Shown: positions 26,844-57,408, counted from the stretch's first letter. The stretch is 64,000 nucleotides of DNA from Sneathiellales bacterium (GCA_028277845.1 JANQFL010000011.1:124001-188000), one strand, 5' to 3'. Notes: generated by a model from the letters alone, not told the origin. Program-made: numbers and translations.

Positions 26844-26959
26844 TGTACCTTCCTCCCGGACTCGCGTTACACGTTTCTCTTTTTATCGCCAATTCAGCCC
26901 GTTCCTGGCAAGTCCGGCTGTCCATTCACCGCATTCGATCGGCGGACCGGGACGAAATG

Positions 26960-40833: not shown

Positions 40834-41763
40834 TCAGTCCGTTGACGCTTGTGCGCAGCGGGCTTCAACGTGCTGGCAGATATAGTGATACAGCACGACA
40901 TGTATTTCCTGGATGCGTGGTGTCGATGATGACGGGACGTCCAATAGGACGTCACAACGATCCCTCATGTCCCCGCCACCTTGGCCGGTCAGGCCGATCA
41001 CCGTCATGCCCGCTGTTTTGGCCCTATCGCAGGCGGCAACCACATTGGCGGAGTTTCCGCTCGTGCTGATGCCAACCAAAACACCGCCTTGTTCCCCATA
41101 GGCCTCGACCTGACGGGCGAACACGGTTTGATAGTCGTAGTCGTTGCTCCACGCCGTCATGGTGGCAACGTTGGAGCACAGGTCGATCACCTTGAGGCCC
41201 GGCCGCTCCACAAGGAACCGGGCCACCAGCTCTCCGGCGATATGCTGAGAATCCGCGGCCGATCCGCCATTGCCGCAAACCAGAACGGGTTTGCCCGCCG
41301 ACAACGCCGTGGTCATCGCCGTAATGGCGGCTTCGACTTTCGGCCCCAGGTCCGCTTCACGCGTCTTGGCAAGAAGGTTCTGGGCGGACGTCAGATAGTC
41401 GAGAAAACTGTCACTCATACCGGCAGAAATTGGATTTTGCTTCGAAACGGTGCCCCCTATGCCGGGGCGCGGCATTGTGGTCGACGCGGCGCCCGCATGC
41501 AAGCCCGCGGTCGGTGCAATATGGGACGTTGCGTCACGTAGAAACTTGCGGCGCATGCCGACGGCGCCCAACGTCGCCACGCAATAGGGCACAAGCAATG
41601 TCAGCGCGACCTTGGTCCAGTCCAAGGGCGCTTGGCCAACGACGGCTTGCCACTGGTTGATCACCGTCAGCAACGGTCCGACGATCAGGGCAACTTTGAG
41701 GGCCCGTTTGGGAACCCCGCCCGAGGTGGCCAGCGATAGGAACGTGTCTTGTCTCAATTGCAT
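40834..41763 (-). CDS. NrtS-like membrane segment fused to SIS-domain (GmhA-like) protein
   Basis: One uninterrupted frame of 309 residues has two parts. Residues about 20-72 are an NrtS-like two-helix unit (ALKVALIVGPLLTVINQW, KVALTLLVPYCVATLGAVG), followed by a polar linker to about 115. Residues 116-309 form a SIS domain with CGNGGSAADSQHIAGELVARF and LVGISTSGNSANVVAACD, the signature of phosphoheptose isomerase GmhA. GmhA converts sedoheptulose-7-phosphate to D-glycero-D-manno-heptose-7-phosphate. An internal ATG at 41418 could start a free SIS protein but has no good ribosome binding site, so a membrane-tethered fusion is the more direct reading. Confidence 0.72.
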   Translation of the reverse strand: MQLRQDTFLSLATSGGVPKRALKVALIVGPLLTVINQWQAVVGQAPLDWTKVALTLLVPYCVATLGAVGMRRKFLRDATSHIAPTAGLHAGAASTTMPRPGIGGTVSKQNPISAGMSDSFLDYLTSAQNLLAKTREADLGPKVEAAITAMTTALSAGKPVLVCGNGGSAADSQHIAGELVARFLVERPGLKVIDLCSNVATMTAWSNDYDYQTVFARQVEAYGEQGGVLVGISTSGNSANVVAACDRAKTAGMTVIGLTGQGGGDMRDRCDVLLDVPSSSTPRIQEIHVVLYHYICQHVEARCAQASTD

Positions 41764-41965
41764 CCTCCGGGCGTTGCAGGTCCGTCGTTTGCCTCAAACG
41801 TAGGGTGTTCGGGCCGGCTTGTCCCTACACTTACGCTTGACCGCCGTTTGAACCACAAATGGGTTGAGCGATCCGCCGGGCGATGTCATAAGCTGCGGAC
41901 AGGGGTCGATCCGCCCCGTTTTCCCACGAATTCACCGCTCGCCTGTAAGGAAAGGACCTCGGCGC

Positions 41966-43699
41966 TTGATCATCCTGGGCATACATACAGGAGGGCATGA
42001 CGGCACCGCGGCCGTATTCGACGACTACGAACTCCTTTCGGCGGTTCAGTTGGAGCGCCTGACCCGGAAGAAGGGGGACGGCAAGGGCATACCGCTGCCC
42101 GCCATCGACGAGGCCCTGGACATTGCCGGGATGCGCCGCCGCGACGTGGACGTCGTGGTGACGTCACGGGCGCTGTTCCACGCCCGCCACTACCGTATGC
42201 CGCCCTATCGCCGGTTCGAGGACTGGATCAACCGGATGATCGGGCGCGGCAAGATGAAGGTCATGGAAAGCGAGCTGTTCCGCCGCCAGGTGGCCGATGC
42301 GTCATCGATTTTCCGGACCGATGCATTCCTCGCCGAGTACGGCTTCCGGCCGGACGCCAAGCTCGTCTTTTCCAATCATCACTTCGCCCACGCCCTGTCG
42401 GCCCTGTTCTTCACCGACTGGGACGACGCGCTGCTCTACACGGCGGACGGCGGCGGCGACAATGTGCACTACAGCATGCGTCACCTCAAAGACGGCCGGA
42501 TCACCGACCTTTTCGGGGACGACCGCTGGCTGTTGCGACCACGGCGCGTCGACAGCCTGGGCCTAGCCTACGGCTATACCACGCAGGCGCTGGGCTACCG
42601 CATGAACCGCCACGAAGGCAAATTGACCGGACTGGCGGCCTACGGCCAACCCACCCTGCTGGACGATCTGGCCTGTCATTTCAAGGTTGACGACAACGGC
42701 GAAGTGCACAGCGACTTCGAGTCCGACGTCGTTATGCGCGGCGAGATCTTTCGCATGGCGGACGGCCAGGACCCCGCCAATGTCGCCGCGTCGATTCAGC
42801 AGTTGCTGGAAGATGTCCTGCTGCAGTCGGTCAAACGGTTCGTCGAGCGCACCGGCGCCGCCAATCTGGCCTTGGCCGGCGGTGTGTTCGCCAACGTCCG
42901 GTTGAACCGTCTGCTTTGCGAAACGACCGGCGTGCGGGAAACGTTTATTTTCCCGGGCATGGGCGACGAAGGCATGGCCGTCGGCGGCGCGCTGGAATTC
43001 CTGTTGCAACGGGATGGCCTGGCAACGTGGCTCGACAATCGCCGGCGGCTCGATTCGGTGTATCTGGGACGGGACTATTCGTCCAGGATCGATCAGGTTC
43101 TCGGCAATGCAACCGGCGTCAAGCGATACAATGGTCCGCCCGGCGAAACCGCGGCGGCGTTGCTCGCCGCGGACAAAATCGGCGCCATCTATGAAGGCCG
43201 CATGGAGTACGGCCCCCGTGCCTTGGGTGCCCGCAGCATCCTGGCGAGCCCGGCCCAACGGGATGTCAACCAATCCCTGAACGACCGGCTCGAACGCACC
43301 GAGTTCATGCCGTTCGCGCCCTATGTCCTGGAAGAGGACGCCGAAGCCGTATTCGATGTCCATGGCGGCAACCGCTATGCCTGCCGTTTCATGACGATCA
43401 CGACGAACGTCAAGGAAGACTGGCGTGAGCGCATTCCGGCCGTGGTGCATGTGGACGGCACCGCCCGCCCGCAGATTATCGAGCGCGCCACCAATCCGCT
43501 TTATGCCGATATCCTCAGCGGATTTCGCACCCGGAGCGGACTGCCCGTGCTGGTCAACACCAGTTTCAACGCCCACGAGGAGCCGATCATCAATTCGCCG
43601 GAAGAGTGCCTGCGCGCCCTGCAGGACGACCGGGTCGATTTCATCGTGACCGGTCAGGCGGTGTACGGCGTCAAGGATCTCGGCGTGGCGGCCGGCTGA
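41966..43699 (+). CDS. NodU/CmcH-family carbamoyltransferase
   Basis: The 577-residue protein starts at TTG 41966 with AAGGAAAGGA upstream; a longer in-frame extension to an ATG at 41864 lacks homology. The N-terminal domain begins ILGIHTGGHDGTAAVFDDY and includes the metal-binding SNHHFAHALSALFFT. The C-terminal half contains YEGRMEYGPRALGARSILA and LVNTSFNAHEEPIINSPEEC. These enzymes use carbamoyl phosphate to carbamoylate a hydroxyl of a sugar or antibiotic. The last 46 bases overlap the convergent glycosyltransferase gene. Confidence 0.9.
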   Translation: MIILGIHTGGHDGTAAVFDDYELLSAVQLERLTRKKGDGKGIPLPAIDEALDIAGMRRRDVDVVVTSRALFHARHYRMPPYRRFEDWINRMIGRGKMKVMESELFRRQVADASSIFRTDAFLAEYGFRPDAKLVFSNHHFAHALSALFFTDWDDALLYTADGGGDNVHYSMRHLKDGRITDLFGDDRWLLRPRRVDSLGLAYGYTTQALGYRMNRHEGKLTGLAAYGQPTLLDDLACHFKVDDNGEVHSDFESDVVMRGEIFRMADGQDPANVAASIQQLLEDVLLQSVKRFVERTGAANLALAGGVFANVRLNRLLCETTGVRETFIFPGMGDEGMAVGGALEFLLQRDGLATWLDNRRRLDSVYLGRDYSSRIDQVLGNATGVKRYNGPPGETAAALLAADKIGAIYEGRMEYGPRALGARSILASPAQRDVNQSLNDRLERTEFMPFAPYVLEEDAEAVFDVHGGNRYACRFMTITTNVKEDWRERIPAVVHVDGTARPQIIERATNPLYADILSGFRTRSGLPVLVNTSFNAHEEPIINSPEECLRALQDDRVDFIVTGQAVYGVKDLGVAAG

Positions 43700-44877
43700 C
43701 CGTGAGCATTCGCAGCGTTCAGTTCCGATAGGCAACAATCGACAACTTTCGACAGCGTGTCGTATGGTCCCGCGTCGGCAATCTGTTGCGCGATCGCCTG
43801 GGCGCGTTCTCCGACCAGCGGATCGGCCAGTCCGCGTTGAACCGATTCGACCACCAGGCCCGGGTCGGCGTCCTTGTGGAAGGACGCGGCGATGCCGGCC
43901 TTGAACAGGACGGCGCCGGTCAGGCGCTGTTCCAAATACCGTGGCAACAAGACCTGCGGCCTGCCGACGGAGAGCGCGGCCGTGGTAACCCCGGCGCCAC
44001 CGTGATGGATGACCAGCTTGGACCGTCCCAGCACCTGCTCCAGCGGCTGCGGTTCGTCGTAAACCGTGTATCCCAGCCCGCGGACCTGTTCCCTTTGCTC
44101 GGCTGTCGCTTCGTGAACGAACATTTGACCCGGCACGCGGGCCTGCGCCAAAGCCTGCAGAAGCTTTCCCACCAATGGATGGCCGGCAAACAGATAGGCG
44201 TAAAACCCGCCGTCCTCTGGAATGGGTTGCAGCCCGGGTGGCGGCTGCAAAGGCCCATGCACGGTCTCGGTCCGGTGTGGCCGGTAGGGATCGATATGCG
44301 GCAGATTGACCAGAAACCGGTGGGCCTGACCGTACATGCGGGTCAACTTCTCGAACGGTTCGATGCCCAGCGCCTTCTGGGTGTCGCGGACCACGTGCAG
44401 GACCTCCGGTTCCGGTAAGACCGGCGGCACGTCCGCCCTGAGCGGCGGAAACACGTCGCCATCGCTTGGCGGCAGCGTGAAACCGTCGCCAACAACGACG
44501 ATCGGAATCGTCCCGTTGATGGCCGCGCACACCGTCGGGCTGTGGTCGGCGACGATCAGATCCGGTTTGATCAGATCGATCAGCGCGAGCCATGCGGCCA
44601 TGTGCGGTTCAAGCACATCCCGGCGGGCAAAGCCGCGGTCCGCCAGCAGGCAGGCAAACGTCCGTGTCGGGTTCTTCGGAAAACACCGGCCACGCCAAAA
44701 CGGCGCCTGGATCACCGGGAAGTCGTCGTCCGACAGGGCCGGCGCCACGGCCGCGACGTCGTGGACCGCGATGACCGAGTCATGCCCATGCGCCTTCAAG
44801 GCCCGGGCGATCGGCAGCATTCGGGTGATATGTCCCAGACCGGCACCCAACTCGTTGGCGAACAGGACGACGCCCAT
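43654..44877 (-). CDS. MGT-type UDP-glycosyltransferase-like protein
   Basis: The 407-residue GT-B protein has the N-terminal GAGLGHITRMLPIARAL and the C-terminal donor site SKLVIHHGGAGVTTAALSVG, with LLPRYLEQR in place of the common P..DQ. This fits family GT1-like macrolide/rhamnosyl transferases that act on small acceptors. The start overlaps the stop of the first CapK-like gene (TAATG), indicating that the two are expressed as a unit. The C-terminus overlaps the convergent carbamoyltransferase gene. Confidence 0.83.
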   Translation of the reverse strand: MGVVLFANELGAGLGHITRMLPIARALKAHGHDSVIAVHDVAAVAPALSDDDFPVIQAPFWRGRCFPKNPTRTFACLLADRGFARRDVLEPHMAAWLALIDLIKPDLIVADHSPTVCAAINGTIPIVVVGDGFTLPPSDGDVFPPLRADVPPVLPEPEVLHVVRDTQKALGIEPFEKLTRMYGQAHRFLVNLPHIDPYRPHRTETVHGPLQPPPGLQPIPEDGGFYAYLFAGHPLVGKLLQALAQARVPGQMFVHEATAEQREQVRGLGYTVYDEPQPLEQVLGRSKLVIHHGGAGVTTAALSVGRPQVLLPRYLEQRLTGAVLFKAGIAASFHKDADPGLVVESVQRGLADPLVGERAQAIAQQIADAGPYDTLSKVVDCCLSELNAANAHGQPAATPRSLTPYTA

Positions 44878-46319
44878 TATTCGCTCTTCCCGGTTTTCGT
44901 GGAAATACGAGTCGTCATGTTGGCCGCGGTCTCGACATTGCACACGACATCTTCGAATTTTCCGTTTTTCGGCCGTTCAAACCGGTCGACGACGACAATG
45001 TTGACCGCCATGCCGGGACGCAGCACCGCCGCGACGGCATCGCCGACGGCCCGTTCCTGGTCCTGATCGATCGTATCGGCGACGACGATGCGAAAATCGA
45101 CACTGTCTTCCGTTTGCTGGATCAGTTGCGCCTGGCGCACGGGCGCCTTGGACATGACGTCTTTCACCAGATCGGTAAAGCCCGGCAGGAATCGCGTGCC
45201 GTCGGGCGCTACCAGCAGATTGCGGTAACGGCCCAGCACCCGCTTCAGAACCGGTAAGCCGCGGCCGCAGGAACACCCGGCTCCGACCTCGGCGTAGTCG
45301 CCCACTTCGTAGCGGATCAGCGGCATGGCGAAGTTGTGCAGGTCCGTGGCCACTATACGGCCGACCTGACCGGGCCGGCAGGGCTGGTCCCGGTCGTCGA
45401 GAACCTCGATCAGGACGCTTTCGGACTGCACGTGATAGTGCCTTTCGGCCGGGCATTCCAACGCCATCAGGCCCATTTCCTGGGATGAGTAGATATCGTG
45501 CAACGGCACGCCCCAAATCGACAAGCACTCGTCACGCAATGCCGGGTCGAGCATCTCGGCCATGGTGGATACTTCGGCCAAGGTATCGGGCGTGAGCCCG
45601 GCCTCGTTGCTGTACTGCAGCAGTTCACGCAGGATGGACGGATATGTCACCAGGTACCGGGGTTTGACTTTCCGCAGCCAGTCGAGTTGATCGCGGACCG
45701 GCTCGCTGGAGTCGAGGAAGAACATCGGCCCCGACGGGTATCCGGGCGCCCAACCCAAACCCTTGCCGTCCTGCGCCGCTTTCAGCTGCGCCCCGCGCAG
45801 GGCGCGAATGGACGCATTGACTGCCCGGAAGTCCCGGCCGTGCCAGGTGTGATAACGCAGGTTGAGGGCGTTGAAAAACAGATTGGTGACGGCGTTCCGG
45901 GTCACCGCAATGGGCCGGCCCGTGGATCCCGACGTACGGATCACGCCGCCCTTGCCGTGATCCTTGGGTGGCTTCCGGCTGTGAACGGCGTCCCCGTGTT
46001 CCTGCAGATCGGCACGGCACAGGATCGGTATCTGCCGGAACGCTTCAAGTGTCAGCCCGCCCGCCGGTATGCCGGCAAGAACCCTGAGCCGGGCGTGGTA
46101 GAACGGACTGGTCTTCGCCGCGTGGGTCAGCAACTGCTCCAACTGCAGCAATTGCATGTGTTGAAGTGTTTCCGCCGGCCACCATTCGCTTTCTTCCAAC
46201 TGGTATTGCAAAGCGACCAAACGAGACGCCTGTGGACTCGGAACCGACGGCCAGACCATGCCTTTGCGGCCGGTAACCGGAAGCACGTCATCCTGGTAGT
46301 GCGGTTTATCCAACGGCAC
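44877..46319 (-). CDS. CapK/PaaK-like adenylate-forming enzyme (copy 1)
   Basis: The 480-residue ANL-related protein has VIRTSGSTGRPIAVTRN as phosphate loop, DIYSSQEMGLMALECP as the A5-like block, IVATDLHNFAMPLIRYEVGD with D-box-like aspartate, and a CSCGRGLPVLKRVLGRYRN cysteine pair characteristic of the CapK/phenylacetate-CoA-ligase-like branch. The usual C-terminal catalytic lysine region is shortened, so it may make an acyl-adenylate for transfer rather than a CoA ester. It is coupled to the glycosyltransferase and lies nine nt after copy 2. Confidence 0.85.
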   Translation of the reverse strand: MPLDKPHYQDDVLPVTGRKGMVWPSVPSPQASRLVALQYQLEESEWWPAETLQHMQLLQLEQLLTHAAKTSPFYHARLRVLAGIPAGGLTLEAFRQIPILCRADLQEHGDAVHSRKPPKDHGKGGVIRTSGSTGRPIAVTRNAVTNLFFNALNLRYHTWHGRDFRAVNASIRALRGAQLKAAQDGKGLGWAPGYPSGPMFFLDSSEPVRDQLDWLRKVKPRYLVTYPSILRELLQYSNEAGLTPDTLAEVSTMAEMLDPALRDECLSIWGVPLHDIYSSQEMGLMALECPAERHYHVQSESVLIEVLDDRDQPCRPGQVGRIVATDLHNFAMPLIRYEVGDYAEVGAGCSCGRGLPVLKRVLGRYRNLLVAPDGTRFLPGFTDLVKDVMSKAPVRQAQLIQQTEDSVDFRIVVADTIDQDQERAVGDAVAAVLRPGMAVNIVVVDRFERPKNGKFEDVVCNVETAANMTTRISTKTGKSE

Positions 46320-46328
46320 GGCCGGGCC

Positions 46329-47702
46329 TCACGCCTCGACCAGGGAGATGAAATCCTCGTACTTGCCACTCGCCGTGCGGGGGATCTCGTCGACGTAATC
46401 GAACGTCAGCTCGAACGGGTGCTTGAGGCAGTCGAGCAAATAGTCCTTGAGCTTTGTTTCCTCTTCCTCGCTCAACGGCCGGGCGGTGACGAGTTTGACG
46501 TCGATCCGATGAACGGATGGCTGAATGAGCTGGATTTGCCGCACCGGCGCGATGGGCATCATGCTGGCGGAGAAATAGGCGATCGGCCAGATCTTGTCGC
46601 CGTTCGGCAGGACCGCCATGTTGCGGCTCCGGCCCAGGACCCGGTTGATCACCGGCAGGCCGCGCCCGCACGAGCACGGCTCTCCGACCTCGGCGTGATC
46701 GCCCAGTTCGTAGCGGATCAACGGGGTGGCGAAACTGTGCAGATCGGTGATCACCACCCGGCCCACCTCGCCGGGCATGCACGGCTTGTCGTCCTCGTTC
46801 AAGACTTCGACGATCACGCTTTCGGACTGGATATGGTAGTGGTCGTGATCGGGGCACTGAATCGCAAGTATGCCCGCCTCCTGGCAGGAATAGGAATCCG
46901 TCACCTTGGCGCCGAAGACGCGCTGCGTGATGTCCCGGATGTCCGGTTCCATCACTTCGCTCATGGTGATGACTTGCTTGAGATTGGGCAGCGACACGCC
47001 CTTCTCCTCCGCCAGCAATCCGAGTGCCTTCAGGTTGGATGGAAAGGTCAGCAGATAATCGGCATTTTGTTCGGCCAGCCAGTCAAGCTGCTCGGAAACG
47101 GGCCTGGTGATGTCGAACATCATCATCGGACCTGTCGGGTATTCGTTGATCCAGCGGATCGGCTTGCCCGATTTCGCGGCCGCGGCCATTTTCTCCGACA
47201 TCAGGCTGCGCACGCCGGCGACCTTGGCCCTCAGGTCGCGTTTATGCCATTCGTGAAACCGCAAGGTAAACGCACGGAATTTCAGCCCGGTAATCCGGGT
47301 GGCCTTCAGTGCGATCGGCTGGCCGGTCGAGCCGGCCGTGCGGACGTCCGATACCGGTTCATGCCCTTTCGGCAATCGCGTGCTTTCAAGCGCCGCTCCG
47401 GCGTTTTGAATATCGGTCCGCTTGAGAATGGGGATGGTCCGCCAGATCTGCGGGTTCAATTGCCCGCGGCGCAGGCCCTTCAGGCTATTCAGCCTGTCCC
47501 GGTAAAACGGCACGGTGGATGCCGCGTGGGCCAACAGCAGTTCGGCCTGCCGGGATTGCAGCATCTCCAACTGCCCAAACGTCAGCCACTGCGACTCGGT
47601 CAACTGAAACAGGTACGACATGACCACGGCGTTGCCGACACCCGGCACGGCGGGCCAGACGACGCCGTCATAGGCGGAATGAGGAACCGTCCGGTTCAGC
47701 AT
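46329..47702 (-). CDS. CapK/PaaK-like adenylate-forming enzyme (copy 2)
   Basis: The 457-residue relative of copy 1 has VRTAGSTGQPIALK (phosphate loop), DSYSCQEAGILAIQCP, VVITDLHSFATPLIRYELGD and CSCGRGLPVINRVLGRSRN. Its end, DEIPRTASGKYEDFISLVEA, places a lysine where ANL enzymes have their catalytic lysine. I start at ATG 47702 because homology begins there; the open frame extends to 47924 over the sulfotransferase 3' end. Two sister enzymes side by side suggest sequential or alternative acyl activation. Confidence 0.85.
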   Translation of the reverse strand: MLNRTVPHSAYDGVVWPAVPGVGNAVVMSYLFQLTESQWLTFGQLEMLQSRQAELLLAHAASTVPFYRDRLNSLKGLRRGQLNPQIWRTIPILKRTDIQNAGAALESTRLPKGHEPVSDVRTAGSTGQPIALKATRITGLKFRAFTLRFHEWHKRDLRAKVAGVRSLMSEKMAAAAKSGKPIRWINEYPTGPMMMFDITRPVSEQLDWLAEQNADYLLTFPSNLKALGLLAEEKGVSLPNLKQVITMSEVMEPDIRDITQRVFGAKVTDSYSCQEAGILAIQCPDHDHYHIQSESVIVEVLNEDDKPCMPGEVGRVVITDLHSFATPLIRYELGDHAEVGEPCSCGRGLPVINRVLGRSRNMAVLPNGDKIWPIAYFSASMMPIAPVRQIQLIQPSVHRIDVKLVTARPLSEEEETKLKDYLLDCLKHPFELTFDYVDEIPRTASGKYEDFISLVEA

Positions 47703-47772
47703 CGTCCGCACTCCCGGTGTGACGTCTTGGCCGGTATTCGCCTTTCCATGCGGTGGATGGTGCGCCGGGGCT

Positions 47773-48741
47773 TCACGATCGTTCTTCGACCAAATCCGTC
47801 GGCACCTTGGTCGGCTTGAAAATGCGGCCGACCCGGGCAGCCGCAAAATCCGGGCCTTCGGGCAGGACGGTCTCTTCGCCCAGCGGTTCGGGCGAAACCG
47901 CAACGGTCTGCGCATCCGGTGCAAGCGTGTAACCCAGATCCGTCATCGTTGGTGAAAACGCCGCCATGAAGTCGGCCCGGACGGTCTCGGGCAAATCCCG
48001 GGCCGGACGGTCGGCCGGGCTGATGACACGGGCGCCGCGCAGCAGGGCGGCTTCCAGTTCGGGGCGGTAGAACAAGCCTTTCTTTCGCGATTTGAGTTCG
48101 TGGATCTCCAGCGCCTGCAGGATATCCCGGCGCGATTTCCTGACGATCCGGTCCGCCGCCGCGTCATCGAGCGGGGCACGGAGGAACCGGCACATGCGTT
48201 TCAACTGCCCGGCGGTGTCCGCCAGAAGGTCCTCATAGCGGACATAGAGTGCCGGCACGCCCTCGGCCCGGCGCCAACTGGCGACGTGGTTGACCCAGTT
48301 CAGATGGTCCGCGCCGGCGTCGCGCAGGGGATGCCCGGCACTGGCGGTGAAACGTTCGGCGTAGGCCTGCCAGGCCTTCTCCAGCGTCTCTTCGTCCGGC
48401 GGACGGTTGGCCGGCACGTATTCCATGCGGTTGAACTGAAACAGGGAGCGCATGACATCGAGGGGGTTGCGCACGATGCAGATATAGCCATCCGTCGTGC
48501 CGGATGCGAATGTGTCCGCTTTCCGGGGCCAGCGGGTGGCGATCAAGGTCCGGCGCCCGGGCGGCAAGGCGACGCGGCGGCCGGTCGTGGCATCGATTTC
48601 CGGAATGACCTGTTGAAGCTGCGCCGACGATTGCAGGTCGCCGACCAGCAGGTTTCCGATCAAGGCGCGCAGCCACAAGGCCCCGGACCTGGGATAGGAC
48701 GCGAGCCAAATCACCCGCGATGGACCGGCTTGATCGTTCAT
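47773..48741 (-). CDS. PAPS-dependent sulfotransferase family protein
   Basis: The 322-residue protein shows the 5'-phosphosulfate loop IWLASYPRSGALWLRALIGN near residue 10 and the 3'-phosphate site YICIVRNPLDVMRSLFQF near 110. These are diagnostic for sulfotransferases that use 3'-phosphoadenylyl sulfate. ALYVRYEDLLADTAGQLKRM also fits. No PAPS-synthesis gene is nearby. It begins the leftward sulfotransferase-CapK-CapK-glycosyltransferase run. Its frame is open upstream through a 24-bp tandem repeat (48808-48923), although the ATG at 48741 is the natural start. Confidence 0.87.
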   Translation of the reverse strand: MNDQAGPSRVIWLASYPRSGALWLRALIGNLLVGDLQSSAQLQQVIPEIDATTGRRVALPPGRRTLIATRWPRKADTFASGTTDGYICIVRNPLDVMRSLFQFNRMEYVPANRPPDEETLEKAWQAYAERFTASAGHPLRDAGADHLNWVNHVASWRRAEGVPALYVRYEDLLADTAGQLKRMCRFLRAPLDDAAADRIVRKSRRDILQALEIHELKSRKKGLFYRPELEAALLRGARVISPADRPARDLPETVRADFMAAFSPTMTDLGYTLAPDAQTVAVSPEPLGEETVLPEGPDFAAARVGRIFKPTKVPTDLVEERS

Positions 48742-48807: not shown

Positions 48808-48923
48808 TGGCTCGTGCGCGAACAGATGCACCGGCTCGCGCGCAAACAGATGTACCGGCTCACACACAAACAGATGCACCGGCTCGCGCGCAAACAGATG
48901 TGTTGGCTCACGCGCAAACGCTG
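48808..48923. repeat. 24-bp tandem repeat, about five copies
   Basis: A unit with the core CGGCTCGCGCGCAAACAGAT repeats at 48808, 48832, 48856, 48880 and 48904 (the last partial), with the copies differing at a few positions. The period (24 bp) is a multiple of three, so all copies stay in frame. On the minus strand they would read EPVHLFAR-type octapeptides continuous with the sulfotransferase frame. The remaining bases of 48742-49078 contain no gene. Confidence 0.9.
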
Positions 48924-49078: not shown

Positions 49079-49930
49079 CTAGACGCCGCCCTGCCCCGGG
49101 TCATCCTCAAAATCCGCCGCCAGCAGATACGCCAGGTCCACCATGCCGATCACGGTCGTTTCCGTGTCAACCGGCGCCCCCGTGTGTTCCCATCCGGCAT
49201 CCAGGGTTTCGTTCATGGCAACCATCCGGAACGCCACCGGTGCGGTTGGCGGCAGCACGCCGCTCATAGCATGAATGACCGGCAGGACCATCAATTGCGC
49301 CGGCATGAGGGACGCTCCCGCCGGCGCGATGTCGCCGGCTGGCAAGCCGCCGAATGACGCGGGCCGATCGCTTTCCCGGAGCGCCGTGCCGGGCGTTCGA
49401 GAGGAGTTGGCCTTATCGGGTGCATCAAAGTTTGAACCGACAAAGCTGTCCGCGCCTGATGTGTCACCGCCCGACACTTGCCTGACAGACCAGTCGTAGA
49501 CAAAAGCCCCCAACCCCAAGCCCGATGCCGTTCCGGCGAAAAACAATCCAGTCACCAACTGCAGATCGTTCTGGCGATAAAGCGCGACCGGCCGGTACGG
49601 AAACAGCCCGTAGGTCACCCGCGCGGCCCGCACGCACCCAACACTATTGGACTGTGCCCGATTTTCCGTGGTTTCGGTATGCGATTGGAAATCGCCTGGC
49701 TCCGCCGCTTCTAGTCCCGCTAAGGACACGCACTCCTCGACCAATAGCGGTTCCAGCGCTGTTCGCCGGGATGGCGCCCAATCAGTTCCAATGCGGTGCC
49801 AATCGTTCTCATTCGACGCAGTCAATGCGATCGGAACCAGGATACCGAAACCGTCATAAGTACGGCCGGCCAAGCGCACCTGAGCAACCAATGCATATTG
49901 ATGGCTGTCGTTTTCCCGAGAGTCGGACAT
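49079..49930 (-). CDS. Hypothetical protein, 283 residues
   Basis: I do not recognise this protein. Residues 1-60 look like a beta-rich domain (QYALVAQVRLAGRTYDGFGILV). The centre has YGLFPYRPVALYRQNDLQLV, then a glycine- and alanine-rich hydrophobic stretch (LVTGLFFAGTASGLGLGAFVY) that may cross a membrane. A disordered serine-, proline- and alanine-rich part leads to a hydrophobic C-terminal segment with VDLAYLLAADFEDDPG. There are two cysteines (ECVSL, GCVRA). It follows the terminator of the large acidic protein gene and is not obviously co-transcribed with anything. The codon use looks normal for the window, which supports it as a gene. Confidence 0.6.
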   Translation of the reverse strand: MSDSRENDSHQYALVAQVRLAGRTYDGFGILVPIALTASNENDWHRIGTDWAPSRRTALEPLLVEECVSLAGLEAAEPGDFQSHTETTENRAQSNSVGCVRAARVTYGLFPYRPVALYRQNDLQLVTGLFFAGTASGLGLGAFVYDWSVRQVSGGDTSGADSFVGSNFDAPDKANSSRTPGTALRESDRPASFGGLPAGDIAPAGASLMPAQLMVLPVIHAMSGVLPPTAPVAFRMVAMNETLDAGWEHTGAPVDTETTVIGMVDLAYLLAADFEDDPGQGGV

Positions 49931-49998: not shown

Positions 49999-50027
49999 GA
50001 AAAAAACGGGCGCCCGGTGGGCGCCCG
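49999..50027 (-). terminator. Intrinsic terminator of the large acidic repeat protein gene
   Basis: CGGGCGCCC-GGT-GGGCGCCCG (50007-50027) is a perfect 9-bp stem with a 3-base loop, followed on the minus strand by seven T residues. It lies 25 bp beyond the stop at 50053. Confidence 0.92.
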
Positions 50028-50052
50028 CCTTTCAACACAACCGTGTTTATGT

Positions 50053-53000
50053 TCAGGGGATCGTGGTGTCAAACAGTGCAGCGTTGACATCCGCGACCGA
50101 TGTGTTGAGCACTGTGGCGAGGATTTCCCCCGAGGCAATGACTTTAATTACAGTGTCAGATCCGTCTGCCGTCACCGAGACATCGCCTACTGCCAGACCA
50201 TCATAGAGGCCGATGCTGTCTCCCTCGGAAAGATCGAAGTCGGTGATGACATCGCCTGTTTCGATGATGTCATCGAGTTCGGACAATCCGGGGTCACCTG
50301 CGGACGGCATGGACCCGTCGCCTTCGGCGAACCAGAAGGTATCCGCACCGTCTCCACCGGTCAGTGTGTCGGAACCGATTTGGCCGTAGAGGTCGTCGTC
50401 TCCATCGCCACCGACCAGGATGTCGGAGAACATGGTGAGATCCGAGTTATCGACACCTTCACCCAATTCGACGGTGATTCCGACATCCGTCTTACCTTCG
50501 TGGTAGAAGTCACCGTACATCTCGTCGTCACCGTCACCGCCTTCCATGGTGTCGCTGAACAGCTTGTAGGTGCCGTCGCTCGAGTCGTTGGAGTCGATTT
50601 GTACGGCGATCTCGCCGGTGGTGCCTTCCTCGATATAGCCGTCACCGACCATGAAGTCACCTTCGTCACCACCGTCCATGGTGTCGTTGAACATGTTGAA
50701 CTCGCCAACACCGCTGACTTCGATGTCCATGTCGCCTTCACCACCGAGGTAGAAGTCGCCAGCCATGTAATCACCTTCACCGAACCCGTTCATGGTGTCG
50801 TTGAAGAGATTGTAGGTGCCGTCGGCTACGTCGTAACTTTCAGAATCGCTGCCGGCCCTGATGCTGGTGAAGCCGTCCATGTCGAGGTAGAGGTCACCGA
50901 CCATCTCGTCTTCATGGGCGCCGCCATCGATGCTGTCGGACCAGGCCAGGAAAGTGTCGCTGAATTCGTCGTCACCTTCGCCGACCGTGCCGTAGGTGCC
51001 CAAGGCTTCAAGAGAAACGATGGCCGGGCAACTATTGCCGTGGCTGTCGAAGTAGACGTCGCCGATCAGCAGGTTGTTACCGTCGCGGCCGTCGATCGTG
51101 TCGTTGAAGCCTTCGAACGTCGTCCGCGAGGCATCGCTCGACGCGACATTGCCGTCACCGTCCCTGTCGGTATCGTTGTCCAGGCGCATCTCCAACTGGT
51201 GCAGCTTGCTGCCGAAGACATAGACGTCACCGACCAGGGTGTCGTCACGATCATGGCCCGTGATGGTGTCGTTGAAGACATCGAAGGTGTTGTCCGTCGC
51301 CTTGCCGTTGTAGTCGGCTCTGTTGTGGGCGACCAACTCGATGTCCAGTCCACCTTCGCCACAAGCGCCCTCAGCGAACACATCGCCCACCATGACGCCT
51401 TCACCGAAGCCCATGGTCATGGTGTCGTTGAACGCGTTGAACGTGTTGTTCGAGGCGCTGTTCTGCGAGTCGCTGTAGCTGTGGTAAATAGAGTCCGCGT
51501 GATTGTGAACCTCGAGGTCGATGTCCCCGGCACCTTCGGCCATGACGTCGCCGACGATGGTGTTGGTTTCGTAGAAATAGTAGCCATCGAGCGGACCGTT
51601 GTCGGTTTCCTCGATCTCGGGCAGATCCGGACCGTCTTCCGGGCCGCCGACGATGGTGTCGTTGTAGGCGTTGAACGTGTTGTTGTCCGCCGTACCGCCG
51701 GCACCATATTCGCCGTAATAGTCGTCACCGCGCGCTTCGTTGTGGATCTGCAGTTCCAACTCAGGGGTATTGCCGATGTTGTAGTAGCCGCCCATGAACA
51801 GGGCATCACCGACCAGGGTGTCGTGCGAACCGAAGCGGTAACGGGCTTCGGTCACGGTCGGCTTGGACGGGAACTCGAAGTCGTCAATGCCGCCGACAAT
51901 GGTGTCGTTGAAGGCATTGAACGTATTGTTGCTGGCCGAGCCGCCACCGAAATCGTATTGGTCGGTCCAGATCGAGAACCCTTCGGCGACGTTGACCACA
52001 TCCAGATCGAGATCGCCACGGCCGTAGCCACCGAAGTACAGGTCACCGACGGCGACGCCGCCGCCATTGCCGATATCGATGTCGTCGCTGAAGGTATTGA
52101 AGGTGTTGTTGTTGGCTTCGCCGCCTTCACCGTACGAACCGGTGGCATGGTTTTCGGTCACCATGACCAAGCCGCCGTCTTCGCTGTAGGGCCACTCCTG
52201 ATCGCCGCCGTCGACATTGCCGTCGTAGTAGACATCGCCGACGGCCTTGTCCCAGCCGTCCTGTCCGACGATGGTGTCGTTGAAGGCATTGAACTCGTTG
52301 TTATTCGCTTCGCCGCCTTCGCCGTAATAGCCGCTGGAATAGTAGTAGCTGCTGACAGCCTCATTGGTGACCTCGAGTTCACCTTCACCATAGCCACTAT
52401 AGGTGGTGACCATCAGATCGCCGATCAGATAGTCTTCGCCTTCGCTACCCTTGATGTTGTCGCTGAAGGCCGTGAAGGTGTTGTTATTGGCGTCACCGGC
52501 CACCGCATTGTAGTAGTGGCCACCCGTGCTCGAATGATAAGCGGTGTTTTCAACGTCGAAGTCGAACTTGAACTTGGATTTGTAATTGAATTCCTGGATC
52601 CAGACGTCGCCGACGATCGTACCGCCGCTGGCATTCTTGGTCAGGACTTCGATATCCGGTTCTTCGCTTTCTTCTTCCGGCGCGGCGTCGCCGCCGTGCA
52701 GGACATCGTTGAAGGCATTGAAGGTATTGCCACTGGCGCTCGGGTCCATGGCGCCTTCGGCGAACGTACCGCTCGCCGAGTTGTGGATGTCGAGGTCGGT
52801 CTCGTTATTGGAACCTTCGGCGAACACGTCACCGATGAGTACGTCTTCGCCCTCGTCGTCGCAGATACGGTCGTTGTAAGCAAAGAACGTGTTGCCGTCA
52901 GCCGAAAGGCCATTGTGCGACTTATTATGTATGTCGAGATCGATATCCTGTTTGTATCCCCAGACATGCACATCGCCGACGCTCAGGTCGTTGCCCTCAC

Positions 53001-54954
53001 CCGGACGCATGACGTCGTTGTAGGCATCGTAGTCGTTGCCGTCGGCTTCTTCTCCGCCGAAACGGAAACTCGACACACGATTTTCGACCGACAGGTCGAT
53101 GTCGCTACCTTCGCCCAGGTTGAAGCCCAGCACGTCACCGACCAGGTGATCGTCGCCGCCATGGCCGAGGATCGTGTCATTGTAGGCGTTGACGGACGCG
53201 CCGTTCACCGCAATGCCTTCCGCGAAAAGGCTGATTTGCTGATCGTCCTGATTGCCTTCACCGGGGCCGAACAGGCCATGGACGCCGACCTGCATGACGT
53301 CGCCCACCAGGATGTCATTCGCATCCGAACCGCACAGATCGTCATTGAAGGCCGTGACACTGCTGCCGTCGGCACCTTCGGCAAAAAACGCGCCGACTTG
53401 GGCGTTCAGCGAGATACCTTCGCCAAAACCGTAATAGTAGTTGTCGAAGCCCACTTCACCGAGGGCGCCCACATCACCGATCAGGACATTGCCGAAATCG
53501 TCGCCGAATTTGTCGCCGATACCGCCGAACGGCAGGCCAGAAAAGTCGCCGCTGCCTTCCGTGAAGACCGGGCCTTCCGCCTTGATGAAATCGTTGAACG
53601 CATTGACGCTGCCGCCTTCGGTAGCGACGGCGTCAAGCGCAACACCTTCGGCAAAGCCGATGCCTTCGCCATAAATGCCGCCCTGGCCGCCTTCACCGCT
53701 GAAGAACAGGCCGGTGGCGCCCACGTCACCGATCATGATGGCGTGGCCGTTGCCGGAGAACAGCACGTCGTTGAAATTGTTCGAACGGGATTCTTCGTGA
53801 TCGGACGCATGAAGATAGCTGCGGCCGATGCCGAACACGTCGTATCCATAGGGGCCAGCGACCTGCGGGCCGTAATCGAACTTGGCAAACGACACAGCCA
53901 TCGAGTCGCCGACGATCAACTCGTGACCGTCGCGGGCGTCGATGTAATCGTTGCCGCCGCCGCCGACCAGAACTTCGTAACCGCCTGAGGTGTCGCTGCC
54001 GAAAATGACATCGTCACCGGGCTCGCCGTAATCACCGTAGTAATAGTCAGCACTGGTAACCGGGTAATAGCCTTCGCCGGTGGACCACAGCTGCGGCGTG
54101 TCGCCATGCGCCAGATTGACGAGACCTTCGCCCGTCGAGACCATCCAGTCGTCGTCGCCGTGACCGATCATCGCCTGGAAGCCCTCGGCGCCCAGGCCGA
54201 TCATGACATCCGGGCCCTTGGTGCCTTCGAAGATTTCGTCGTGGCTTTCTTCGCCGCCATCCGGCGTATCTTCGACCGAAATCCGGCCGGACACCGGTCC
54301 GTCCCAGGTCGACATGTAAGCCGTAAACAGTTGCTCACAGGTGATTTCCGGGCAAATCTCTTCTTCCTCAGGCGCAAGCGCCGGGGCCACGTCGGGCTCC
54401 AGGAACACCACTTCCAGATCGACATCGGGAGCCGTGAACGACAGGCTGGTCGGACCCAACGGACCCAGCGGGTCGCCGGCCGGGCCGATCGGGCCCTGCG
54501 CCTGAGGCGCCACTGTCGAACCATCGTCATCCAGCGTACCGGTGGCGCCGGCGGCCGGAGCAATACCGGCCGGCAGTTCGCCGCCCGCGGCAGGGGTCGT
54601 CTGCGCCGCGGCGGTCGCCAGCATGTCGCCAGCCGCCATCTGCAAGTCACCCGAGAACGCGAAAGTCGGCGGCGTATCGGACTGCGATGCCGTGACGAAA
54701 TCCTTCAGGAGAATGCGAGTGCCGTCGCCCAAGGTGAGCATCAGGCCGTCGCCGATCAGCGTCATCGACGAGCCGTCGAGGTTTACATCGCTCAGATCAA
54801 TGCGGGCACCCGGCGCCACATCGATGACCCGATCCGCCGTGGCATCGGAAGCCGTCGTCGATGCTTGTGCGACTTGAACGAACGCCTGCTCGCTCGCAAC
54901 CTGCGTCTTGTTTTCCTGGGTTTCGGAAATACCAGACTTGTGATTCGTCGACAT
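50053..54954 (-). CDS. 1633-residue acidic secreted repeat protein with RTX-like C-terminus (candidate type I secretion substrate)
   Basis: AAGGGGT upstream of the ATG supports the start. No signal peptide is present. Residues 1-40 are polar. Residues 65-86 hold a short beta motif (LIGDGLMLTLGDGTRILLKD) also seen in the giant protein at 57409. Residues about 90-220 are a Pro/Ala/Gly linker with CPEITCEQLF. About 240-1500 consist of some 20 irregular repeats centred on NTFNAFNDTI...VGDV. The last 130 residues have RTX-like GGDGDDDLYGQIGSDTLTGG, then an aspartate-rich stretch and a hydrophobic end (ALFDTTIP), as in type I secreted proteins. Asp/Glu greatly exceed Lys/Arg. The TolC-like gene is divergent from it. 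Confidence 0.88.
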   Translation of the reverse strand: MSTNHKSGISETQENKTQVASEQAFVQVAQASTTASDATADRVIDVAPGARIDLSDVNLDGSSMTLIGDGLMLTLGDGTRILLKDFVTASQSDTPPTFAFSGDLQMAAGDMLATAAAQTTPAAGGELPAGIAPAAGATGTLDDDGSTVAPQAQGPIGPAGDPLGPLGPTSLSFTAPDVDLEVVFLEPDVAPALAPEEEEICPEITCEQLFTAYMSTWDGPVSGRISVEDTPDGGEESHDEIFEGTKGPDVMIGLGAEGFQAMIGHGDDDWMVSTGEGLVNLAHGDTPQLWSTGEGYYPVTSADYYYGDYGEPGDDVIFGSDTSGGYEVLVGGGGNDYIDARDGHELIVGDSMAVSFAKFDYGPQVAGPYGYDVFGIGRSYLHASDHEESRSNNFNDVLFSGNGHAIMIGDVGATGLFFSGEGGQGGIYGEGIGFAEGVALDAVATEGGSVNAFNDFIKAEGPVFTEGSGDFSGLPFGGIGDKFGDDFGNVLIGDVGALGEVGFDNYYYGFGEGISLNAQVGAFFAEGADGSSVTAFNDDLCGSDANDILVGDVMQVGVHGLFGPGEGNQDDQQISLFAEGIAVNGASVNAYNDTILGHGGDDHLVGDVLGFNLGEGSDIDLSVENRVSSFRFGGEEADGNDYDAYNDVMRPGEGNDLSVGDVHVWGYKQDIDLDIHNKSHNGLSADGNTFFAYNDRICDDEGEDVLIGDVFAEGSNNETDLDIHNSASGTFAEGAMDPSASGNTFNAFNDVLHGGDAAPEEESEEPDIEVLTKNASGGTIVGDVWIQEFNYKSKFKFDFDVENTAYHSSTGGHYYNAVAGDANNNTFTAFSDNIKGSEGEDYLIGDLMVTTYSGYGEGELEVTNEAVSSYYYSSGYYGEGGEANNNEFNAFNDTIVGQDGWDKAVGDVYYDGNVDGGDQEWPYSEDGGLVMVTENHATGSYGEGGEANNNTFNTFSDDIDIGNGGGVAVGDLYFGGYGRGDLDLDVVNVAEGFSIWTDQYDFGGGSASNNTFNAFNDTIVGGIDDFEFPSKPTVTEARYRFGSHDTLVGDALFMGGYYNIGNTPELELQIHNEARGDDYYGEYGAGGTADNNTFNAYNDTIVGGPEDGPDLPEIEETDNGPLDGYYFYETNTIVGDVMAEGAGDIDLEVHNHADSIYHSYSDSQNSASNNTFNAFNDTMTMGFGEGVMVGDVFAEGACGEGGLDIELVAHNRADYNGKATDNTFDVFNDTITGHDRDDTLVGDVYVFGSKLHQLEMRLDNDTDRDGDGNVASSDASRTTFEGFNDTIDGRDGNNLLIGDVYFDSHGNSCPAIVSLEALGTYGTVGEGDDEFSDTFLAWSDSIDGGAHEDEMVGDLYLDMDGFTSIRAGSDSESYDVADGTYNLFNDTMNGFGEGDYMAGDFYLGGEGDMDIEVSGVGEFNMFNDTMDGGDEGDFMVGDGYIEEGTTGEIAVQIDSNDSSDGTYKLFSDTMEGGDGDDEMYGDFYHEGKTDVGITVELGEGVDNSDLTMFSDILVGGDGDDDLYGQIGSDTLTGGDGADTFWFAEGDGSMPSAGDPGLSELDDIIETGDVITDFDLSEGDSIGLYDGLAVGDVSVTADGSDTVIKVIASGEILATVLNTSVADVNAALFDTTIP

Positions 54955-55629
54955 CTGTTTAGACCCCTTAATTTTTAGTCGGTACGCACGGCGAGCCCCG
55001 CCACGCGAGGTTTCGCCAATATTCCAATCAAATTTTACTCATCCGGTTTTCTGGAGGGGAATCAAAATAGGCCTGTCCTATACATCATAGTGTGAGCAAT
55101 GTCATTTTTTTGCCCCACTAAAGTTAACGCGCCGACCCGATGGTCAATTCCCGGAGAGACCTGCACCCAAAGGGCTGAATAACTCGTCCACCGTGTCACT
55201 TTACGGCACCGTCCAACGCCTGGCGCGTATCCCGACCCACGACTAATCATTTGAAAATAAAGTGAAACCTCCGCACAACTCCGTCACGACAGGGCTGCAG
55301 CAACTTTGGCCGGGATGTTGCCACGCAGTAATCGATCGGCGGTCGCGTGCGGTTCGCCGATTGCCGGACGGTTGAAGCGGGCGAATTGTGTTTGCCGGAC
55401 ATGGTTAACATCCGCGGACATCGAACAACGCCGAAGTATTAACAACGATTAAGATTTTCCCGAGGGAAAACAGTGCTGTAGGACATCAACCGTTGCTCGC
55501 AATTCCCTGTGCTACAATCAATCGTTGCAAGCGAACCGCAATTTGTAAAATGGTTAACGACGATGGTTGACCGGACGCATCGGTCGGGTGATTATGCCGC
55601 CGATGCAACCGAGAGCGGCAGGGAGCGCG
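54955..55629. other. 675-bp divergent intergenic region of secretion locus
   Basis: I find no gene and no strong repeat. A TTAA-N6-TTAA occurs at 55439-55452, one base short of a CtrA box, and a GTTAAC at 55132. Promoters for the large leftward gene and the TolC-like gene must lie here. Confidence 0.5.
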
Positions 55630-56958
55630 ATGAAACCGATGCGTCCGACGGCGTCACATTGCGCTGGGGTTTTTGGCCTCTTTTTGGCCGGAACAGTACT
55701 CACCGGGCTACCGACCAGCGCCGAAACCCTGAACCAGGAGCTTAAGGTTCTGCTCTCGACTCACCCGCAGCTACATGCCGCCTCAAAGGCCGTTAATTCA
55801 GCCAAATCGGCCCGGACCGAGGCGTTTTCGGGATTTTTGCCGCAGGTCACGTTATCGGGTGATTATGGTTACGAATACACGGACAGTCCGGCCCGCCGGG
55901 CCAACCCGGGCGATGCCCTGGACACCACGCGAAACAGCGTGACTTTGACCGTTACGGAAAACCTGTTCGACGGATTTCGCGATTCGGCCAATGTCGACCT
56001 GGCCGCCGTGAATCAGAACATCGCGTCAGATAACCTGGAAAGCGTCAGCCAAACCCTGCTGTTCCAGGGCACCACGGCTTTTTTGAATGTCATCCGTTCG
56101 AGCCGTCTGGTCCAGCTCGCGCGGGAAGACGAAGTGACCATACAGCGTCAGCTCAAGCTGGAAAACGAACGGGTACGCAAGGGTTCCGGCATTGGCGTCG
56201 ACGTTCTGCTGGCCAAATCCCGCTTGCAGGTTTCGAAGGAGCGGCGCGTCGCGTTCGAAGGCCGATTGCGCCAGTCCATGGATACCTATTTGAAATTGTT
56301 TGGGAAAATGGCCGACCCGGAGGCTCTCGTCGACCCGATCCCGCCGTTGGATATTCTGCCGGCAAACGTCAATGAGGCGATTTCGATCGCCCTGAAGACC
56401 AATCCGCGGCTGAAATCGGCATCCCGCAATATCGACGCCGCGGAACACCGCCGCCGCGCCGCCGAGGCCGACCTGTATCCGCGCATCGATCTGGTGGCCA
56501 AAGGCAACCATGAGAACGACGTTGACGGCGTGGTCGGTCGCCGGACCGATTATTCGGTGCTGCTGGAAGCCCGCTGGGACCTGTTTTCCGGTTTCCGCAC
56601 ACGCTCGCGCATCGATCAGGCGGAAATCGCCCAGGCTATCAGCCGGGACGACCTGTCCGACAACAACCGCAGCGTCATCGAGGAAACCCGGCTGGCCTGG
56701 GATGCCTTGTCGACGACGAAGGAGCGGGTCAGCCTGCTGGGCAATGCGGTCACCATTGCCAGCGAAGTTTTCGAAGCCCGCGAGAAACTGCGCCGGGCAG
56801 GCAAGGAATCGGTGATCAATGTGCTCGACGCGCAGCAGGAACTCAACCGCGCCCGCATCAACTTCACCGAAGCCAATTACGACGCGCGAACGGCGGCCTA
56901 CCGCCTGCTCCTGGCGATGGGCCGGATGACCGTCAAGGACATGGGCCTGAGCGAATAG
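55630..56958 (+). CDS. TolC-family outer-membrane channel
   Basis: The 442-residue protein starts at ATG 55630 with AGGGAG upstream and has a signal peptide (HCAGVFGLFLAGTVLTGLPTSA). The body is the internally duplicated TolC pattern: ETLNQELKVLLSTHPQLHAA, QVTLSGDYGYEY, TVTENLFDGFRD, and in the second half ISIALKTNPRLKSA, LEARWDLFSGFRT, SVINVLDAQQELNRARINF. TolC proteins form the outer-membrane exit of type I secretion systems. Placed between the two very large secreted-type proteins it is almost surely their channel; the ABC and membrane-fusion partners are not in the window. Confidence 0.9.
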   Translation: MKPMRPTASHCAGVFGLFLAGTVLTGLPTSAETLNQELKVLLSTHPQLHAASKAVNSAKSARTEAFSGFLPQVTLSGDYGYEYTDSPARRANPGDALDTTRNSVTLTVTENLFDGFRDSANVDLAAVNQNIASDNLESVSQTLLFQGTTAFLNVIRSSRLVQLAREDEVTIQRQLKLENERVRKGSGIGVDVLLAKSRLQVSKERRVAFEGRLRQSMDTYLKLFGKMADPEALVDPIPPLDILPANVNEAISIALKTNPRLKSASRNIDAAEHRRRAAEADLYPRIDLVAKGNHENDVDGVVGRRTDYSVLLEARWDLFSGFRTRSRIDQAEIAQAISRDDLSDNNRSVIEETRLAWDALSTTKERVSLLGNAVTIASEVFEAREKLRRAGKESVINVLDAQQELNRARINFTEANYDARTAAYRLLLAMGRMTVKDMGLSE

Positions 56959-57408
56959 TCCGATTGCCCGGCAATTCGGGACTGTCGAAGTTTCTTACAC
57001 GCAAAATCGCATCCTATGTCAACCCGACCCTTGATTAACGCCGGGGAAACTGGGGAAAATGAAGCAACCATCGGCATCGGCCCCATTCCTGTGAGTCGGA
57101 ATACTTTACAATTCCTGGTCCCTGAATTGTCCCGTAAACCATAAGGTTTCAGCCGTTCCGCCAAAATTCTGATTTGGCACAAGCTTTGCTCGCCTCAGGG
57201 TTAAGCAAGTGTTAATTTGCTTTGGTTTTGAGCGATTAGCTTTGTAAAAGTGTTTGTCTGAACCCGTTTCACGGGCGTCTGTACCGACCGGGTCGTGATC
57301 GCGGTCACATACGCCGCCGTGGAGCGGTGTTTTCTTTGGAACCGCACCGGACGGTTTGTCCGGTTCTTGAAAAACGATGACGGTTCCAGGAATGCCAAAA
57401 GGGGTGGC
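56959..57408. other. 450-bp leader region of the giant gene
   Basis: No gene is supported. The region is less GC-rich than its flanks and contains the CtrA-type site at 57201-57215. The 190 bp between that site and the start may be a 5' untranslated leader; small stems can be drawn, but none is striking. Confidence 0.5.
57201..57215. promoter_or_regulatory. CtrA-type box TTAA-N7-TTAA
   Basis: TTAA (57201-57204), seven bases, TTAA (57212-57215) followed by T instead of the preferred C. It lies 194 bp upstream of the giant adhesin-like gene. Together with the DivK-like gene and its own box, it suggests that this organism has a CtrA regulon; one site alone is weak evidence. Confidence 0.45.

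What the first reader, a model, noticed from the sequence alone, without database searches (positions are those of the whole stretch)
40834..48741. Undescribed tailoring island: carbamoyl-, sulfo- and glycosyl-transfer plus two CapK-like enzymes
The set combines a NodU-type carbamoyltransferase, a PAPS sulfotransferase, an MGT-type glycosyltransferase, two CapK-like adenylating enzymes and a heptose-type isomerase. Carbamoylation and sulfation of a glycosylated acyl compound recall Nod-factor decoration, but NodA/B/C are absent. The leftward genes are translationally linked, so they act together. I know of no described pathway with this combination.
Basis: partly seen in the sequence, partly recalled or inferred. 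Interest (0 to 1): 0.72.

Follow-up and report, generated by a model that had tools for sequence, protein, structure and literature searches.

The report
RTX-protein-linked sugar and sulfate operon
A four-gene bacterial operon for adding sugar, sulfate and possibly an acyl group sits beside genes for giant exported calcium-binding repeat proteins, and its sugar-adding enzyme belongs to a branch that in other bacteria also tends to lie next to such proteins, so it probably decorates an exported surface protein or the coat around it rather than making a Nod-factor-like lipid.

Summary
The genes are real and the coordinates right. They are three units, not one island. (1) A leftward operon: sulfotransferase, two CapK/PaaK-like adenylating enzymes and a GT1-fold glycosyltransferase (GT). 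(2) A NodU-like carbamoyltransferase on the other strand; its orthologues occur in 10 of 289 class genomes without these neighbours. (3) A GmhA-like isomerase. No other sampled locus held more than two of the five families. The best clue lies outside the given range. The operon is downstream of a large RTX repeat protein and next to a complete type I secretion locus. The genome has exactly two GTs of this family and exactly two RTX proteins with this N-terminal domain, and they are paired both times. In 68 relatives from other species, 20 of 28 GTs in the window's clade, but 2 of 40 outside it, lie within 10 kb of RTX or type I secretion genes. I conclude, at moderate confidence, that the operon tailors the RTX protein or its surface glycan. 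The acceptor, the sugar and the acid activated by CapK are not shown. The Nod-factor-like reading is not supported.

The parts
40834..41763 (-). GmhA-like SIS isomerase with an NrtS-like N-terminal membrane segment in the same ORF; neighbour, probably not part of the operon
   Evidence: PF13580 8e-28, TIGR00441 186 bits under its 209 cut-off, NrtS 33 bits; internal ATG 41418 without a clear ribosome-binding site
41966..43699 (+). NodU/TobZ-like O-carbamoyltransferase (start TTG 41966 inferred); opposite strand; own orthologue group
   Evidence: PF02543/PF16861; 51-61% identity orthologues in 10 other class genomes, aligned from about residue 34, no shared operon neighbours
43654..44877 (-). 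GT: GT1-fold (MGT/EryCIII-like) glycosyltransferase of an RTX/type I secretion-associated clade; last gene of the operon
   Evidence: AlphaFold model pLDDT 90.4, best matches macrolide and natural-product GTs
44877..46319 (-). CapK1: PaaK/CapK-like adenylate-forming enzyme; P-loop TSGSTGRP and PKNGKFED lysine motif present
   Evidence: TAATG overlap with GT
46329..47702 (-). CapK2: second PaaK/CapK-like enzyme; P-loop AGSTGQP and TASGKYED lysine motif present
   Evidence: 9-bp gap to CapK1
47773..48741 (-). PAPS-type sulfotransferase PF00685; first gene of the operon; PAPS-site motif YPRSG and second motif RNPLDV present
   Evidence: nearest solved relatives StaL, Teg14, Teg12
48809..48919 (.). 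24-bp tandem repeat, 4.6 copies, just upstream of the sulfotransferase start
   Evidence: Tandem Repeats Finder
50001..50033 (-). strong intrinsic terminator after the RTX gene; the own-genome paralogue has a similar one
   Evidence: 15-pair stem; paralogue sequence
50053..54954 (-). RTX-type repeat protein, 1633 aa, about 20 repeats of 40-80 aa (NNTFNAFNDTIVG..LVGDV); proposed protein partner or substrate
   Evidence: PF00353 2e-5; repeats; paralogue next to the GT paralogue
55567..56958 (+). TolC-type outer membrane channel of type I secretion
   Evidence: TIGR01844 248 bits over cut-off 225
57295..64000 (+). giant cadherin/Ig/RTX protein, runs on past the window (about 6,670 aa in all), followed by type I ABC transporter and HlyD genes

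Best explanation
The sulfotransferase-CapK2-CapK1-GT operon is a tailoring unit tied to the RTX protein encoded upstream on the same strand and to the adjacent type I secretion locus. Most likely the GT adds a sugar in the cytoplasm to the RTX protein, or to a glycan carried by it or anchoring it, before export. The CapK pair activates an acyl or aryl acid used to acylate that sugar, and the sulfotransferase adds sulfate. Carbamoyltransferase and isomerase are neighbours with separate histories. Shown: gene order, operon spacing, enzyme families, intact motifs, and the GT-RTX association. Inferred: that the linkage is functional, that protein or glycan is the acceptor, and every reaction step.
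For: G000 has exactly two GTs of this family (C2 and C34) and exactly two proteins with this RTX N-terminal domain (same two contigs). They are paired both times; at C34 the GT lies about 77 bp downstream of the RTX gene on the same strand, and the two N-termini are 50% identical over 202 alignment columns. GT tree: the window sits in a 30-row clade (support 100/98) in which 22 loci have RTX or HlyD genes within 10 kb; leaving out the two own loci, 20 of 28 inside against 2 of 40 outside, Fisher 6e-9. That test ignores relatedness; the tree needs 7 or more label changes and no shuffle of 500 was as clustered. Natural control: a paralogous clade, partly from the same genomes (Nisaea, Thalassobaculum, BAL199), 0 of 15. 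In several islands the order is GT4, TPR protein, GT, RTX. A complete type I system adjoins the window RTX gene. Sulfotransferase, both CapKs and GT are closely spaced on one strand.
Against: Only the GT carries the RTX association. The sulfotransferase has no close relative in 270 class genomes (best 31%), and CapK relatives lie near RTX genes in 1 of 30 loci. A strong terminator and about 1.3 kb separate the RTX gene from the operon. G000 lacks the GT4 and TPR partners of the other islands. The solved structures nearest the GT are mostly enzymes acting on small molecules or lipids. Adjacency is not a demonstrated reaction.
Confidence: 0.48

Rival explanations
1. The operon builds or decorates a surface polysaccharide (LPS or exopolysaccharide) that holds the RTX protein at the cell surface, rather than modifying the protein itself. 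From general knowledge, the RTX-type S-layer protein of Caulobacter is exported by type I secretion and needs LPS O-polysaccharide to attach.
For: Some GT islands carry sugar-nucleotide and polysaccharide genes: UDP-sugar dehydrogenase and several GT4 in L079, nucleotidyltransferase in L087. A GmhA-like heptose isomerase is close by.
Against: No polymerase, flippase or O-antigen export gene among the annotated genes of the window. The own-genome paralogue locus has only the GT beside the RTX gene.
Confidence: 0.22
2. The operon tailors a secreted small molecule or lipid (aryl or acyl glycoside sulfate); the RTX neighbourhood is incidental here.
For: Closest solved relatives of each enzyme act on small molecules: StaL and Teg sulfotransferases, macrolide-type GTs, PaaK-like ligases, TobZ and GdmN carbamoyltransferases. 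CapK relatives elsewhere often lie in acyl-CoA settings.
Against: No PKS or NRPS core among the proteins scanned in the window. GT-RTX pairing recurs twice in this genome and in most of the GT clade.
Confidence: 0.15
3. A chance neighbourhood: unrelated enzyme genes accumulated beside a type I secretion locus in one lineage and do not act together.
For: The set is not conserved anywhere sampled. CapK1 is closer to a distant paralogue on contig C94 than to CapK2. Carbamoyltransferase orthologues lack these neighbours.
Against: Operon spacing with a 9-bp gap and a TAATG overlap; GT-RTX association far above the controls.
Confidence: 0.15

Closest known systems
GT4 / TPR protein / GT / RTX islands of Rhodospirillales (Thalassobaculum, BAL199 and relatives)
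   Same: GT of the same clade beside RTX genes
   Different: Those carry a ~580-aa GT4 and a ~610-aa TPR protein, both missing from this genome, and no sulfotransferase was detected; of the 78 GT loci only L169 has a CapK relative. I found no paper on them in the held library.
FlmG flagellin glycosylation of Caulobacter (PMC7591256)
   Same: Idea of cytoplasmic O-glycosylation of an exported protein before secretion; the TPR proteins of the related islands are about FlmG's length (596 aa) and also start with TPR repeats
   Different: No TPR glycosyltransferase in the window; homology of the island TPR proteins to FlmG not tested; substrate would be RTX protein, not flagellin
raxX-raxSTAB (PMC6637879)
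   Same: A sulfotransferase gene next to a type I secretion system and its exported polypeptide
   Different: RaxX is a 60-residue precursor; here the protein is 1633 aa, with CapK and GT genes added; relation of the two sulfotransferases not tested
NodU / Nod-factor decoration
   Same: NodU-like carbamoyltransferase and a PAPS sulfotransferase near each other
   Different: Carbamoyltransferase scores 138 bits against a NodU cut-off of 1000; no NodA/B/C families among the window proteins scanned; opposite strand
StaL / Teg glycopeptide sulfotransferases with GtfA-D-type glycosyltransferases
   Same: Nearest solved structures for the sulfotransferase and among the nearest for the GT
   Different: Low identity; no glycopeptide assembly genes seen in the window

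Membership tests
Nod-factor type tailoring | NodU-grade carbamoyltransferase | tested here: not met
   138 bits against the NCBIfam NodU cut-off of 1000
Nod-factor type tailoring | NodA/NodB/NodC core synthesis genes nearby | tested here: not met
   None among the Pfam or NCBIfam matches of the window proteins scanned; the rest of the genome was not searched for them
RTX/type I secretion-associated GT clade | GT places inside the clade with good support | tested here: met
   30-row clade, support 100/98, though on a long end branch of 1.12
RTX/type I secretion-associated GT clade | RTX gene or type I secretion gene within 10 kb | tested here: met
   RTX at 50053-54954 starts about 5 kb from the GT, TolC at 55567 just over 10 kb away, ABC and HlyD after the giant protein
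RTX/type I secretion-associated GT clade | GT4 and TPR-protein partners, as in several member islands | tested here: not met
   No good match in the whole genome: GT4 best 30 bits; TPR model matches only in its TPR part
GT1-fold (MGT/EryCIII-like) glycosyltransferase | Two-lobed GT-B model matching MGT structures, conserved GxGH and HHGG motifs | tested here: met
   pLDDT 90.4, Z 27.9, rmsd 4.3 over 354 residues to 6j31 and Z 27.6, rmsd 4.4 over 351 to 2iya, motifs
CapK/PaaK-like adenylate-forming enzymes | P-loop and C-terminal catalytic lysine motif | tested here: met
   TSGSTGRP and PKNGKFED in CapK1; AGSTGQP and TASGKYED in CapK2
PAPS sulfotransferase PF00685 | Family score over cut-off, PAPS-binding motifs | tested here: met
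   68 bits, cut-off 22; YPRSG and RNPLDV in the sequence
D-sedoheptulose 7-phosphate isomerase GmhA | Score over the TIGR00441 equivalog cut-off | tested here: not met
   186 bits against 209; GmhB search of the genome also under its cut-off, 87 against 149.6
Protein glycosylation or sulfation system | Modification of the RTX protein observed | not testable with these tools
   Needs mass spectrometry of the protein

The most novel reading that the evidence does not exclude
The operon modifies a giant type I-secreted RTX protein in the cytoplasm with sulfate (possibly on its tyrosines: 4.2% Tyr and ten Tyr-Tyr runs, against 3.0% and none in the paralogue that has no sulfotransferase gene beside it) and with an acylated sugar: a multi-enzyme modification system for RTX proteins, with relatives of the GT in such islands across Rhodospirillales.
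Probability: 0.12. Interest if true: 0.75.

Novelty: new variant of a known kind. Interest (0 to 1): 0.45.

Why it matters
If right, it would mean that RTX proteins exported by type I secretion, a large class of bacterial surface and secreted proteins, can have dedicated sugar and sulfate decoration. The GT clade gives a genomic marker for finding such systems in cultured strains such as Thalassobaculum, Nisaea, Stella and Azospirillum, where it can be tested.

Tried and rejected
One conserved five-family pathway: rejected; no second locus found with more than two of the families. CapK tandem pairs as one ancient conserved pair: rejected; first and second copies do not form clades, and CapK1 groups with the C94 paralogue at 99/94. 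CapK neighbourhoods as a guide to function: mixed acyl-CoA, methyltransferase, amidase and other settings, no single theme. Plasmid relatives: only distant hits for CapK, GT and sulfotransferase. Structure of the RTX repeat region: pLDDT 31, unusable. GmhB as evidence for a heptose pathway: under the cut-off. Tyrosine sulfation of the RTX protein: only mildly suggestive; other RTX proteins reach 4.7% Tyr, kept as the novel case. Papers on RTX glycosylation by such islands: three general reviews for the broad query, none for the narrower ones; library limited to open licences.

Full report
What is there. The window is G000:C2:124001-188000 of a 5.39-Mb genome; the search tool lists its kin only at class level. 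Leftward order: sulfotransferase (ATG 48741), CapK2 (ATG 47702, 70 bp after the sulfotransferase stop), CapK1 (GTG 46319, 9 bp after CapK2), GT (ATG 44877, TAATG overlap with the CapK1 stop). These four form a convincing operon. The carbamoyltransferase is on the other strand, tail to tail with the GT, and the isomerase diverges from it. Catalytic motifs look intact: CapK P-loops and lysine motifs, PAPS-site motifs, GxGH and HHGG in the GT.

Is the set conserved? No. CapK2 was searched in 289 class genomes and 398 phylum genomes, GT and carbamoyltransferase in 289 class genomes, the sulfotransferase in 270, and the GT alignment across 84,980 GTDB species by a motif-based scan. Neighbourhoods of the CapK, GT and carbamoyltransferase hits were screened with all window proteins. 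The largest overlap found is two families: a CapK relative (407 bits) just ahead of a GT relative in L169, a gammaproteobacterial MAG. Searches were sampled and motif-limited, so absence is not proof. The sulfotransferase is diverged (best 31%); only the best of its weak hits had its neighbourhood read. The carbamoyltransferase has a clear orthologue group at 51-61% identity in 10 genomes, without shared operon neighbours beyond pairs or trios of related loci.

The stronger signal. Next to the operon, upstream and on the same strand, is a 1633-aa RTX-type protein with about 20 repeats. Beyond it a complete type I system lies on the other strand: TolC, a cadherin/RTX giant of about 6,670 aa, ABC transporter, HlyD (ABC and HlyD recognised by reading the frames). 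The genome has two GTs of this family and two RTX proteins with this N-terminal domain. At contig C34 the GT follows the RTX gene directly, with a GC-rich terminator between them like the one after the window RTX gene. Among 78 GT loci with named organisms, RTX and secretion genes cluster in one part of the tree: 22 of 30 rows in the clade with the window, 2 of 40 outside; without the two own loci 20 of 28 against 2 of 40, Fisher 6e-9. Relatedness makes that p-value too small, but the label needs 7 or more changes on starred branches and 0 of 500 shuffles were as clustered. A paralogous clade of 15 GTs, partly from the same genomes, has none. Loci fetched for CapK and carbamoyltransferase had an RTX gene in 1 of about 42. 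In several islands the order is GT4, TPR protein, GT, RTX.

Mechanism. The likeliest reading is that the operon decorates the RTX protein or a glycan bound to it before or during export: GT adds a sugar, the CapK pair activates an acyl or aryl acid, the sulfotransferase adds sulfate. None of these reactions is shown. The main weakness is that only the GT carries the RTX association; the others are tied in by operon spacing alone. GT fold neighbours mostly act on small molecules, which keeps the small-molecule rival alive. The surface-glycan rival is hard to separate by genomics, since sugar-nucleotide genes occur in some related islands. Two published systems make a protein target conceivable: cytoplasmic flagellin O-glycosylation by FlmG (PMC7591256) and sulfation of a type I-exported peptide by RaxST (PMC6637879). 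They are analogies; membership was not tested.

Verdict. The pathway idea is partly supported: a real four-gene tailoring operon, but no five-enzyme pathway and no sign of a Nod-factor-like lipid. The GT-RTX association is, as far as I could search, not described, and is the part worth following.

Noticed in passing
L129, L137, L138, L146 (also L125, L126, L128, L130, L132, L135, L143, L148, L172): Recurring genes: ~580-aa GT4, ~610-aa TPR protein with a well conserved C-terminal part that Pfam does not recognise, and the GT; in the first four an RTX protein follows the GT directly. Possibly an undescribed RTX glycosylation island.
   Followed up: partly
window 40834-41763: An NrtS-like membrane segment and a GmhA-like SIS domain share one open reading frame, joined by about 40 residues; fusion or two genes in one frame is unclear.
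   Followed up: partly
window 48809-48919: Four to five copies of a 24-bp tandem repeat between the upstream ORF and the sulfotransferase start.
   Followed up: no
window 49079-49930: 283-aa ORF between the RTX gene and the operon, weak coding score and no Pfam match.
   Followed up: no
L169 1076-4423: CapK relative (407 bits) and GT relative (117 bits) on one strand in a gammaproteobacterial MAG, with a TPR protein nearby.
   Followed up: partly
L035 2296-10546: RTX protein of 1984 aa, then a methyltransferase overlapping a CapK relative by 4 bp; methyltransferase-CapK neighbours also in L042 and L051.
   Followed up: no
window 24966-28846: Two adjacent acyl-CoA synthetase-like AMP-binding genes of 625 and 628 aa beside a pentapeptide-repeat protein.
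   Followed up: no
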